Part shown: positions 2,835 to 62,781 of the stretch, piece after piece
Layout of the letters: each line of letters starts with the position of its first letter
Position numbering within the stretch: position 1 is the first letter of the stretch
From: Vibrio cidicii
GTDB taxonomy: Bacteria; Pseudomonadota; Gammaproteobacteria; Enterobacterales; Vibrionaceae
NCBI RefSeq assembly: GCF_009763805.1
Contig: NZ_CP046804.1
Span: forward strand, 3,348,001-3,412,000
Direction: 5' to 3'
Length of the DNA stretch: 64,000 nucleotides
Position numbers and translations under genes: made by a program
Notes under the pieces: generated by a model
Databases searched by the model: none
What the model was told of the DNA's origin: nothing
The model's input: the letters and a program-made list of their open reading frames with translations, nothing else

Positions 2835-3153
2835 ATGGCAAAGCGCACGCCCAATCTCGCCAAATTAATTTTGATCGACTTACTCACTGTAGGTCGGGTG
2901 CCGCTTTTGCTGCTGCTGTGCATTTTTGCGACGGCAATGGCCGTGGTCTTTGCCACGCACCACACTCGTCAAGCGATCACCTTTAAAGATCAAACCTTGC
3001 AAGAGCGCGAGCATCTCGACAGTGAGTGGCGTAACTTAATGCTGGAAGAGACGGCACTGGCTGAGCACAGCCGAGTACAGGAAACTGGCGAAGAAAGAGT
3101 TGGAAATGCGTCGTCCGGATGGTGACAAAGAAGTGGTGATCAATCTGAAATGA
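2835..3153 (+). CDS. ftsL: Cell division protein FtsL (apparent +1 frameshift near codon 83)
   Basis: FtsL is a small bitopic protein of the FtsQLB divisome complex. The N-terminal part holds a cytoplasmic segment, one membrane helix (about residues 21-42, VPLLLLLCIFATAMAVVF) and the start of a coiled coil ending AEHSRVQ. The frame then shifts: GAAAC at 3081-3085 has one base too many. Read as GAAC it gives QELAKKELEMRRPDGDKEVV and stops at 3151-3153, where the stop overlaps the ftsI start. The corrected protein is 105 residues, normal for Vibrio. The uncorrected frame ends at 3125 with an unrelated tail. FtsL is essential, so a sequence error is more likely than a true mutation. Confidence 0.9.
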
Positions 3154-4880
3154 TGGCGAAAAAGAGCAAAAGTAAACTTCAGTCGTCAGAGAAAGAGCAA
3201 GCGAGCCCGGTACTGATCCGTTGGCGCTTCCATCTGGTGCTGTTTTTTGTCTTCTTGGCGTTTGCAGCTTTGGTGGCACGTTTGGCGCTGATCCAAGTGG
3301 TGGAGCCTGATAACCTGATTCGTGAAGGGGATTTGCGTTCGATTCGCGTCAAAGCGCTGCCTTCTGCGCGAGGGATCATTTCGGATAGAAATGGCGAGCC
3401 GCTGGCGGTGAGTGTCCCGGTGGAAGCCGTGTGGGCCGATCCGGTGACCATTTTCAAAGAAAATGGCTTGGATAACCCGCAGCGATGGTATGCGTTAGCG
3501 GATGTACTTGGGCTTGAGCGTGACGAATTGATCGAGCGAATTCGCCGTAATGAAACTCGGCGCTTTATCTACTTGCAGCGTCAAGTCAGCCCTGCGATGG
3601 CCAACTATATTCGCGAGCTGAAATTGCCGGGCGTGGGGCTGAAAGAAGAGTCTCGCCGCTATTATCCCGCCGGAGAAGTGAGTGCACACTTAGTGGGCGT
3701 GACTGGTATTGACGGCCACGGCTTGGAAGGGGTTGAGCGCAGTTACGACAATTGGCTGACGGGCGAAGCGGGGAAACAGACCATCCGGAAAGATCGCTAT
3801 GGTCGCGTGGTGGAAAACATTGCGCTGGAAGAGCGTCAAGAGGGCAAACCGCTCAATCTGACCATTGATCAACGTTTGCAAGCTATTGCCTATCGCGCCA
3901 TCAAACAAGCGGTGGCGGATCATCGCGCGACGTCGGGGTCGGCAGTCATGTTAGATGTCAAAACAGGCGCGGTACTGGCGATGGTCAACGCCCCATCTTA
4001 CAACCCTAATAACCGCAGTGATTGGCAAAGTTATAAAATGCGCAATCGCGTGATTACTGACTCTTTGGAGCCTGGCTCGACCGTCAAACCGTTTGTTATT
4101 CTCGCGGCACTGGAAAACGGCGTTGCGACGAAAGATACCGTAATTGATACGGGCAACGGCATTTTGCAAGTGGGAGGCAGCCGAGTACGTGATGTCTCGA
4201 AAGTCGGTAAGGCCAATCTCACCGAAATCCTCAAAAAATCCAGTAATATCGGCGTGACGAAACTATCGATGGAGATGCCGATTGAGGCACTACTTGGAAT
4301 GTATAACTCGGTCGGTTTAGGCGAGCTATCCGGGCTGAACTTAGTGGGGGAAGTGACGGGTATTTTCCCCACGCGTACGCGCTGGTCACCGATTGAACGC
4401 GCTACGCTCGCTTTTGGCTATGGCTTGTCTGTGACACCAATCCAGTTGGCGCACGCCTATGCGACTTTAGGTAACGAAGGCAAATATGAGCCGATCCACA
4501 TTATCGAAAGTCATGAACGCGACATGGCCAAGCAGGTGGTGTCGCAAAAGCATGCACGAGAAGTGCTGAATATGTTGGAAACCGTGACGCAAAAAGGCGG
4601 CTCGGCCCGTCGTGCGGCTGTACCCGGCTATCGGGTCGGGGCGAAAACCGGCACCTCGCGTAAAGCGAGCGCGGGTGGATACAGTGATGAATACATCACC
4701 TATACCGCCGGCGTTGCGCCAGTGAGCGATCCGCGCATTGCGCTGGTGGTGGTGGTGAACGAGCCGCAGGGTGATGATTACTACGGTGGCTCGGTCGCTT
4801 CGCCAGTCTTTTCCGAAATTATGAAAGGGGCGCTGCAAATCTTAAATGTCGCTCCAGATGAAAACCAGTTCCAGAATTAA
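3150..4880 (+). CDS. ftsI: Septal peptidoglycan transpeptidase FtsI (penicillin-binding protein 3)
   Basis: This protein crosslinks septal peptidoglycan and is the target of several beta-lactams. It is 576 residues long: a short cytoplasmic N-terminus, one membrane helix (about residues 28-50), a dimerisation domain, and a transpeptidase domain. The catalytic serine is in STVK at residue 310, then SSN (KSSNIG), and the KTG triad starts at residue 499 (AKTGTSRK). The start could be the ATG at 3150 or the one at 3153. It overlaps the restored stop of ftsL. FtsW, encoded downstream, is its glycosyltransferase partner. Confidence 0.96.
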   Translation: MMAKKSKSKLQSSEKEQASPVLIRWRFHLVLFFVFLAFAALVARLALIQVVEPDNLIREGDLRSIRVKALPSARGIISDRNGEPLAVSVPVEAVWADPVTIFKENGLDNPQRWYALADVLGLERDELIERIRRNETRRFIYLQRQVSPAMANYIRELKLPGVGLKEESRRYYPAGEVSAHLVGVTGIDGHGLEGVERSYDNWLTGEAGKQTIRKDRYGRVVENIALEERQEGKPLNLTIDQRLQAIAYRAIKQAVADHRATSGSAVMLDVKTGAVLAMVNAPSYNPNNRSDWQSYKMRNRVITDSLEPGSTVKPFVILAALENGVATKDTVIDTGNGILQVGGSRVRDVSKVGKANLTEILKKSSNIGVTKLSMEMPIEALLGMYNSVGLGELSGLNLVGEVTGIFPTRTRWSPIERATLAFGYGLSVTPIQLAHAYATLGNEGKYEPIHIIESHERDMAKQVVSQKHAREVLNMLETVTQKGGSARRAAVPGYRVGAKTGTSRKASAGGYSDEYITYTAGVAPVSDPRIALVVVVNEPQGDDYYGGSVASPVFSEIMKGALQILNVAPDENQFQN

Positions 4881-4915
4881 CTGAATACCTGAGCTTAGCT
4901 CGGAGAATTGAAACC

Positions 4916-61855: not shown

Positions 61856-61996
61856 ATGTTACCGACAATCACAGCTACCCCAATGTCCTTTGGTCGCCGC
61901 GCCGCACGGCTGCCCGCTCCTAATCGCCATGTCACAGGGCAGGGACACTATCGAACCCCACAAAAGGCGACGCATCCGCATGAGAAAAGCGAATAG
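61856..61996 (+). CDS. Small orphan protein, 46 residues
   Basis: A strong ribosome site (GGAGG at 61843-61847, eight bases before the ATG) precedes a 46-codon frame opening MLPTITATPMSFGRRAARLP. The product is basic and rich in Pro, Arg and His (many RH and PH pairs), with no signal peptide or membrane helix. I do not recognise it. A different, longer frame (61812-62021) crosses the same DNA but lacks a ribosome site. Position is between nfo and ung. Confidence 0.5.
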   Translation: MLPTITATPMSFGRRAARLPAPNRHVTGQGHYRTPQKATHPHEKSE

Positions 61997-62099
61997 CGTT
62001 TACTCTGAGGGAGTGAGGTAATTAAATACAAGTTGCCCGGTTTATCGTGCGTATTTGGGTGTAAAATAGCGGCTTTGATAGTAACTGTAGGATTCCCCA

Positions 62100-62781
62100 A
62101 TGACACAGGAAACTGACCTGGCACGATGTAATTGGTGCTGAAAAGCAACAGGCGTATTTTCAACAAACACTCAGTTTTGTGGACGCAGAGCGTCAGGCCG
62201 GAAAAGTCATTTACCCTCCGGCCAAAGACGTGTTCAACGCTTTCCGTTTTACGGAATTTAATCAAGTCAAAGTGGTCATTCTCGGCCAAGACCCGTACCA
62301 CGGGCCCAATCAGGCACATGGCCTGTGCTTTTCTGTTCTTCCTGGAATCAAGCCGCCGCCATCTTTGGTTAATATGTACAAAGAGTTGGCACAAGATATC
62401 GAAGGCTTTCAGATACCAGCACACGGTTTTTTACAGAGTTGGGCAGAGCAAGGTGTCCTGCTGTTGAATACGGTTTTGACCGTAGAGAAAGGGAAAGCGC
62501 ACTCGCATGCAACCAGCGGGTGGGAAGTGTTTACCGACCGGGTCATCGAGGCGATCAACCAGCATCAGCAAGGCGTGGTTTTCTTACTTTGGGGTTCGCA
62601 TGCGCAAAAAAAGGGCCGCTTCATTGATAGAAACAAGCACTATGTGCTCTCGGCCCCGCATCCCTCTCCGCTTTCTGCGCACCGGGGATTTTTAGGTTGC
62701 CGCCATTTTTCTCAAACGAATCAGTTGCTTTCTCAACAAGGAAAAACGCCAATCCACTGGCATTTACCGATGATGGTTTAA
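62100..62781 (+). CDS. ung: Uracil-DNA glycosylase (apparent +1 frameshift near codon 4)
   Basis: Ung removes uracil from DNA. The ATG at 62100 is followed by GAAAC at 62109-62113; with GAAC the protein reads MTQELTWHDVIGAEKQQAYF and joins the downstream frame. The catalytic Asp64 is in GQDPYHG, as in E. coli, and the DNA-contact motif APHPSPLSAHRG is near the C-terminus. Corrected length is 226 residues. Uncorrected, translation could start only at 62179 and would miss the conserved N-terminus. Confidence 0.95.

What the first reader, a model, noticed from the sequence alone, without database searches (positions are those of the whole stretch)
3081..62113. Eleven identical +1 lesions: every frameshift in the window is GAAC read as GAAAC
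Sites: ftsL 3081-3085, murF 6607-6611, murG 11427-11431, carB 27056-27060, yadS 30410-30414, btuF 31318-31322, first gltB 38589-38593, second gltB 44444-44448 and 46014-46018, nfo 60990-60994, ung 62109-62113. At each, removing one A from GAAAC (or one T from GTTTC) restores a full-length protein of normal family length. None is a deletion and none lies in another context. In yadS and the first gltB the GAAAC lies on the strand opposite the coding strand, so the event acts on DNA or reads, not on mRNA. Not every GAAC is hit: GAACTGGCG is intact at 10162-10170, although the ftsL and btuF lesions have that same 9-mer as their corrected sequence. Random indels would not show this uniformity.
Basis: seen in the sequence. 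Interest (0 to 1): 0.9.

Follow-up and report, generated by a model that had tools for sequence, protein, structure and literature searches.

The report
Sulfur-marked DNA misread as frameshifts
The many 'broken' genes in this Vibrio genome are probably not broken: the extra letter falls at the four-letter word that a DNA-sulfur (phosphorothioate) system of the kind encoded in the same genome is known to mark, so the sequencer most likely misread the marked spots.

Summary
All 11 sites read GAAAC/GTTTC. In 266,563 nt of aligned coding DNA of this genome, 35 of 40 single-base insertions lie at GAAAC/GTTTC (0.61 expected by chance) and none fits any of 16,503 other NAAN sites. The genome (two contigs, Vibrio by its named relatives) carries dndBCDE with DndG and DndH, a phosphorothioate (PT) system whose published motif in E. 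coli B7A and Salmonella Cerro 87 is GAAC/GTTC. A second dnd+ Vibrio (G010) shows the same lesion (30 of 32 insertions). Six dnd-negative Vibrio show none at 3,106 GAAC sites. Lesion flanks resemble published PT flanks: 0 of 73 follow T (35% of intact sites do), and A/C-GAAC-T/G is 51% against 22.5% (significant in G000, not in G010 alone). dndC itself changes frame at this motif. Best explanation: PT-modified GAAC was read as GAAAC, most likely by nanopore base-calling, and survived into the consensus. Against: nine other dnd+ Vibrio assemblies are clean, 23S rRNA copies are nearly clean, the platform is unknown, and PT was not measured.

The parts
3081..3085 (+). GAAAC, +1 frame switch in ftsL
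   Evidence: one reference; FtsL profile matches the upstream frame
6607..6611 (+). GAAAC, +1 frame switch in murF
   Evidence: three references; Mur ligase domains split over two frames
11427..11431 (+). GAAAC, +1 frame switch near the start of murG
   Evidence: one reference; downstream frame matches MurG from profile position 15
27056..27060 (+). GAAAC, +1 frame switch in carB
   Evidence: eight references; carB is in two pieces in G000
30410..30414 (+). GAAAC on the + strand, +1 frame switch in yadS (gene on - strand)
   Evidence: five references
31318..31322 (-). GTTTC on + strand (GAAAC on the coding strand), +1 frame switch near the start of btuF
   Evidence: one reference; BtuF profile from position 29 in the downstream frame
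38589..38593 (+). GAAAC on the + strand, +1 frame switch in the first gltB (gene on - strand)
   Evidence: profile positions 3-343 and 341-1490 in two frames
44444..44448 (-). GTTTC on + strand, +1 frame switch inside the second gltB
   Evidence: profile positions 8-527 and 527-1485 in two frames
46014..46018 (-). GTTTC on + strand, +1 frame switch at the N-terminus of the second gltB (weaker support)
   Evidence: profile begins at position 8 in the downstream frame
60990..60994 (+). GAAAC, +1 frame switch in nfo
   Evidence: two-frame translations and profile from position 23
62109..62113 (+). GAAAC, +1 frame switch at the N-terminus of ung (weaker support)
   Evidence: profile begins at position 8 in the downstream frame
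10162..10170 (+). GAACTGGCG, intact, preceded by T: a flank never hit among 73 lesions

Best explanation
The +1 'mutations' are consensus-sequence scars of DNA phosphorothioation. The strain's DndCDE enzymes replace a non-bridging oxygen by sulfur between G and A of GAAC and between G and T of GTTC, at a minority of such sites and on both strands. When native DNA is read by a single-molecule method, most likely an Oxford Nanopore base-caller not trained on this backbone change, the altered signal at highly modified sites is called as one extra A/T. Where most reads agree, the error survives polishing and appears as GAAAC/GTTTC and a false frameshift. Shown here: motif restriction, extent over about 460 kb, presence of dndBCDE/GH in the same genome, recurrence in a second dnd+ species, absence in six dnd-negative genomes, PT-like flanks. 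Inferred: that the sites carry PT in this strain, that the platform was nanopore, and that the insertion arises in base-calling.
For: Motif: 35 of 40 insertions in G000 and 30 of 32 in G010 are at GAAAC/GTTTC; expected 0.61 and 0.52; 0 assignable to 16,503 and 9,422 other NAAN sites. System: DndB, DndC (in two frames), DndD, DndE, DndG, DndH, a PT-dependent restriction enzyme family member and a dnd-associated putative methyltransferase in a 20-kb stretch of G000. DndC of G000 and G010 are 82% identical and each is 69% identical to an E. coli DndC. Published motif for E. coli B7A and Salmonella Cerro 87 is GpsAAC/GpsTTC, and PT there raises nanopore errors at GAAC/GTTC in a dndC-dependent way (PMC9069010, parts 1-3 of 4 read). 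Partial use: about 2% of aligned GAAC/GTTC sites are hit (35 of 1,736; 30 of 1,394), below the 12% PT occupancy published for Salmonella (PMC9521924, passages). Flanks: 0 of 73 lesions after T against 1,066 of 3,065 intact sites; A/C-GAAC-T/G 37 of 73 against 691 of 3,065, p 3e-7; G at +2 36 of 73 against 972 of 3,065, in line with the M/K and +2 G preference published for PT sites. Dnd genes: the five frame switches found in the dnd clusters (dndC once and the methyltransferase twice in G000; dndD and dndH once each in G010) each have GAAAC/GTTTC at the junction. Controls: dnd-negative G009, G007, G043, G097, G178, G136 have 0 insertions in the aligned parts, 0 of 3,106 GAAC sites. Genes such as ftsL, murF and murG are essential by general knowledge, so true loss in all is implausible.
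Against: Nine other dnd+ Vibrio assemblies (G006, G061, G067, G084, G088, G120, G115, G127, G202) have 0 insertions at 3,871 GAAC sites, so dnd alone is not sufficient and 2 of 11 dnd+ against 0 of 6 dnd-negative is not significant genome by genome; G010 was picked because it is dnd+. 23S rRNA: 1 of 310 sites in 10 of 11 G000 copies and 0 of 325 in 10 of 11 G010 copies, fewer than about 6 each expected at 2%. In G010 alone the A/C..T/G flank test is not significant (10 of 30, p 0.18), and the published C at -2 is not seen (24 of 73, p 0.23). Four dnd+ E. coli records with 35-kb annotated stretches, and one with 17 kb, show frameshifted remnants of integrases and regulators but no such core-gene lesions. 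Platform and raw reads unknown; PT not measured.
Confidence: 0.82

Rival explanations
1. A base methylation at GAAC (for example N6-methyladenine from the dnd-associated putative methyltransferase TIGR04096 or an unidentified enzyme), not sulfur, causes the base-calling error.
For: G000 and G010 both carry TIGR04096 beside dnd. Modification-mediated nanopore errors from untrained modifications are documented (PMC10687267, passages). Wadley et al. themselves name overlap of methyltransferase and sulfurtransferase substrates as a limit.
Against: G067 carries TIGR04096 and dnd and is clean, which weighs equally against sulfur alone. A methylase normally marks nearly all its sites (general knowledge), whereas about 2% are hit. 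The flank pattern matches published PT sites. A full methylase search of G000 was not made.
Confidence: 0.1
2. Ordinary homopolymer error of long reads without any modification.
For: The events are one-base gains in an A or T run; two likely error-prone dnd-negative genomes do have indels.
Against: 0 insertions assignable to 25,925 other NAAN sites with the same run length; the two error-prone dnd-negative genomes show only deletions, three of four in or beside G or T runs, and 0 insertions at 407 GAAC sites.
Confidence: 0.03
3. The insertions are real mutations, for example from mis-repair of Dnd-nicked or PT-restricted GAAC sites, tolerated or compensated in the cell.
For: Same motif and dnd association; PT systems nick or cut DNA at GAAC (general knowledge).
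Against: Lesions would inactivate several essential cell-wall and division genes and the dnd genes themselves at once. Nine dnd+ genomes are clean.
Confidence: 0.03
4. Programmed ribosomal frameshifting or a translational signal at GAAAC.
For: Recurrent identical heptamer-like context.
Against: The motif lies on either strand relative to the gene (yadS and first gltB have GAAAC on the non-coding strand), so it cannot be one mRNA signal; relatives have open frames at these genes.
Confidence: 0.01

Closest known systems
DndABCDE DNA phosphorothioation, GAAC/GTTC type (E. coli B7A, Salmonella enterica Cerro 87)
   Same: dndBCDE genes present, DndC 69% identical to an E. coli DndC; motif GAAC/GTTC; partial use of sites; A/C before and T/G after the motif, G at +2
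   Different: PT was not measured in this strain; lesions hit about 2% of sites, not 12%; C at -2 not enriched
Nanopore detection of PT as raised error at GAAC/GTTC (Wadley et al. 2022, PMC9069010)
   Same: native single-molecule reading disturbed at GAAC/GTTC in dnd+ cells
   Different: there, read-level error odds against an amplified control; here, a fixed direction of error (+1 A/T) that reached assembled consensus sequences and broke gene models
Modification-mediated consensus errors in nanopore-only genomes (Chiou-type Listeria genomes, PMC10687267; methylation-linked errors in outbreak typing, PMC11610573, listing only)
   Same: lineage-specific defence-linked modification leaves motif-bound consensus errors
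   Different: Listeria errors are mismatches at GCAGC/GCTGG and not indels (passages); here single-base insertions at GAAC/GTTC with a dnd cluster

Membership tests
Dnd phosphorothioation of the GAAC/GTTC type | dndC, dndD and dndE (with dndB) in one cluster | tested here: met
   dndC is in two frames; dndA and dndF were not looked for
Dnd phosphorothioation of the GAAC/GTTC type | events confined to GAAC/GTTC | tested here: met
   65 of 72 insertions strictly at the motif, 67 of 72 with a wider margin; 0 at 25,925 other NAAN sites
Dnd phosphorothioation of the GAAC/GTTC type | only a minority of motif sites used | tested here: met
   35 of 1,736 and 30 of 1,394 aligned sites
Dnd phosphorothioation of the GAAC/GTTC type | published flank preference M before, K after, C at -2, G at +2 | tested here: inconclusive
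   M..K and +2 G met in the pooled set and in G000; in G010 alone only -1 (0 T; M p 0.04); C at -2 not met
Dnd phosphorothioation of the GAAC/GTTC type | sulfur present at the sites (LC-MS, iodine cleavage) | not testable with these tools
   no DNA
Modification-mediated consensus error of nanopore assemblies | recurrent error at a modification motif, absent from unmodified relatives | tested here: met
Modification-mediated consensus error of nanopore assemblies | assembly made from native nanopore reads without short-read correction | not testable with these tools
Modification-mediated consensus error of nanopore assemblies | vanishes after whole-genome amplification | not testable with these tools
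   no reads
Homopolymer indel error | hits runs irrespective of flanking bases | tested here: not met
   0 of 25,925 other NAAN sites
SspABCD phosphorothioation (CCA motif, recalled) | ssp genes and CCA motif | not tested
   no search for ssp genes was made; the lesion motif is not CCA

The most novel reading that the evidence does not exclude
Public genome assemblies hold readable phosphorothioate maps: in some dnd+ genomes the sulfur marks are preserved as GAAAC/GTTTC insertions, so motif, flank rules and a lower bound of heavily modified sites can be read from the finished sequence alone, with no reads. Here this would give the first PT site list for two Vibrio species, with the rule that T before GAAC excludes heavy marking.
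Probability: 0.6. Interest if true: 0.72.

Novelty: new variant of a known kind. Interest (0 to 1): 0.6.

Why it matters
If true, dnd+ genomes sequenced this way carry false frameshifts in essential genes (G000: 35 in 266,563 aligned nt), which mislead pseudogene counts, completeness and contamination scores, cgMLST and family searches, including for dndC itself. It also turns an artefact into a signal: the scars report where heavily phosphorothioated sites lie, why only some GAAC are used (flanks), and in which unstudied species the system was active when the DNA was taken. None of the seven text searches listed under Tried and rejected returned a paper that by its title or by the passages I saw describes +1 consensus scars at PT sites; the library covers only open-licence papers.

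Tried and rejected
Tried without use. (1) 23S rRNA as a lesion reporter: 1 lesion in 310 sites of 10 G000 copies, 0 in 325 of 10 G010 copies (a first, wrongly oriented alignment was discarded). Unexplained; mixing of reads between near-identical copies during polishing is a guess. (2) E. coli: 204 of 5,426 complete genomes carry dnd, but the five regions opened show no lesion-like core-gene frameshifts; pseudogene state cannot be read from the 60 of 204 rows listed. (3) Split DndD over the order: 22 of 394 genomes above the cut-off, DndD unsplit in those listed above it; no further lesioned genome found. (4) Genus-wide carB screen: 225 of 227 genomes matched; nine had more than one match (G000, G001, G019, G069, G075, G113, G158, G171, G178); of these only G000 and G178 have few contigs, the seven others were not examined; the match list was truncated. 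(5) Literature searches for assembly scars at PT sites; seven in all.

Considered and rejected: random indels, homopolymer error, mRNA-level frameshifting, real mutations (see rivals). A base methylase at GAAC is not excluded.

Limits of the aligner: it demands eight good codons on each side, so it missed the gltB, nfo and ung sites in the window; in G000 and G010 it covers 67% and 45% of the 400 kb given. Seven insertions outside the strict motif test were kept in all counts: five in G000 (one on rnpB; one beside GTTTC; one within two bases of GAAAC; two unexplained) and two in G010 (one beside GTTTC; one unexplained). Deletions: 4 in G000, 5 in G010, 2 in G009, 1 in G007, 1 each in G061, G127 and G097, 2 each in G178 and G136. 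The eight window sites that the aligner had not found were added from the finding to the flank test. The site-level p of 4e-20 treats sites as independent, which they are not.
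Full report
1. Where the window lies. The window is C2:3348001-3412000 of a two-contig genome of 4,750,222 bases. Named relatives found with its murD-like protein are Vibrio, the best being Vibrio sp. 05-20-BW147, so I take it for a Vibrio; the species is unknown.

2. The observation. All 11 sites read GAAAC or GTTTC. 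carB, yadS and murF are confirmed as frame switches by eight, five and three relatives; ftsL, murG and btuF by one each. Profile matches of the separate frames meet at the sites in both gltB genes, and the N-terminal part of nfo is in the other frame. ung and the outer site of the second gltB rest on about seven residues. The window keeps 388 intact GAAC/GTTC.

3. Beyond the window. I aligned coding regions to orthologues of G009 and G007 with an alignment that allows frame changes (scripts). G000: 266,563 nt covered, 40 insertions, 35 at GAAAC/GTTTC, 4 deletions. G010, another Vibrio (80% identical over a 2.7-kb gene): 180,675 nt, 32 insertions, 30 at the motif, 5 deletions. G009: 109,825 nt, 0 insertions, 2 deletions. 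G007: 108,340 nt, 0 insertions, 1 deletion. Random intervals of the same lengths would hit the motif 0.61 and 0.52 times; of other contexts with two A or T between non-A or non-T letters, 16,503 sites in G000 and 9,422 in G010, none has an assignable insertion.

4. The suspect. GAAC/GTTC is the published phosphorothioate motif of the Dnd system of E. coli B7A and Salmonella Cerro 87 (PMC9069010, parts 1-3 of 4 read). Among 118 Vibrio genomes, 14 pass the DndC cut-off, G000 and G010 among them. A 20-kb stretch of G000 (L122) holds DndB, DndC in two frames, DndD, DndE, DndG, DndH, a member of the PT-dependent restriction enzyme family, a DGQHR protein below its cut-off, and a dnd-associated putative methyltransferase in pieces. 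dndA and dndF were not sought. G000 and G010 DndC are 82% identical, and 69% identical to an E. coli DndC.

5. The dnd genes carry the scar. Frame switches in G000 dndC (motif at L122:13165) and twice in the methyltransferase gene (15357, 16825), and in G010 dndD (L280:9448) and dndH (motifs at 5437, 5454 and 5462), each have GAAAC/GTTTC at the junction. A cell that marked its DNA had working Dnd enzymes, which fits a reading error better than a mutation.

6. Flanks. Of 73 lesions (35 found by alignment and 8 added from the finding in G000; 30 in G010) none follows T, against 1,066 of 3,065 intact sites. A/C-GAAC-T/G holds for 37 of 73 against 691 of 3,065 (p 3e-7; G000 27 of 43, p 4e-8; G010 10 of 30, p 0.18). 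G at +2: 36 of 73 against 972 of 3,065 (p 0.002). C at -2: 24 of 73 against 817 of 3,065 (p 0.23). EcoWI mapping of PT in Salmonella and in E. coli with its dnd genes reports A/C before, T/G after, C at -2 and G at +2 (PMC9521924, passages).

7. Controls. Eight further dnd+ genomes (G006, G061, G067, G084, G088, G120, G115, G127) and two without a DndC match above cut-off (G043, G097) have 0 insertions in 24 to 66 kb each. G178 and G136, picked as likely error-prone (contamination 5 and 4; carB in two pieces in G178) and lacking DndC above cut-off, have 0 insertions and 2 deletions each, three of the four in or beside G or T runs. G202 (dnd+) has none. Pooled: 0 of 3,106 GAAC sites in six dnd-negative genomes, 0 of 3,871 in nine clean dnd+ genomes. 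At genome level 2 of 11 dnd+ against 0 of 6 is not significant; the case rests on motif, flanks and system together.

8. Reading. PT marks at GAAC/GTTC were most likely read as an extra A/T in native single-molecule data. Nanopore is favoured because PT is known to raise nanopore errors at this motif (PMC9069010) and because untrained modifications are known to leave consensus errors in nanopore genomes, there as mismatches (PMC10687267, passages). The few other indels in G000 point to otherwise accurate data. Clean dnd+ genomes would be those polished with short reads, read by another method, or little modified; this is inference.

9. What stays open. Platform, PT chemistry, a methylase acting at GAAC (TIGR04096 is present in G000, G010 and also in clean G067), and the near-clean 23S rRNA copies.

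10. Verdict. The finding is a real, strong and explainable artefact, not biology of the genes; its cause is interesting because it exposes an epigenetic mark in a finished sequence. Interest 0.6.

Noticed in passing
L122 (G000 C2:655001-675000) 302-16934: dnd gene cluster with DndG, DndH, a PT-dependent restriction enzyme family member, DGQHR protein, DndE, DndD, DndC, DndB and a dnd-associated putative methyltransferase.
   Followed up: yes
window 35149-39682 and 41520-46053: Two complete large-subunit glutamate synthase (gltB) genes lie near each other; a gltS RNA family match (RF02982) sits at 46132-46236 on the - strand just upstream of the second.
   Followed up: no
L255 (one 23S rRNA copy of G000): One of ten 23S copies examined carries the GAAC-to-GAAAC insertion, the other nine do not; rRNA copies are hit less than coding DNA.
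   Followed up: partly
L260-L262 (G178) and L263-L264 (G136): Two dnd-negative assemblies show a deletion call beside a GGGGGG run in what looks like the same sequence context against all four references, possibly a shared feature and not an error.
   Followed up: no
window 55213-55333: Threonine operon leader (RF00506) upstream of the thr genes.
   Followed up: no
E. coli collection: 204 of 5,426 complete E. coli genomes carry dndBCDE, all on chromosomes, in at least three sequence groups (22 at 99% or more, 154 at 90-95%, 28 at 80-90% identity).
   Followed up: partly
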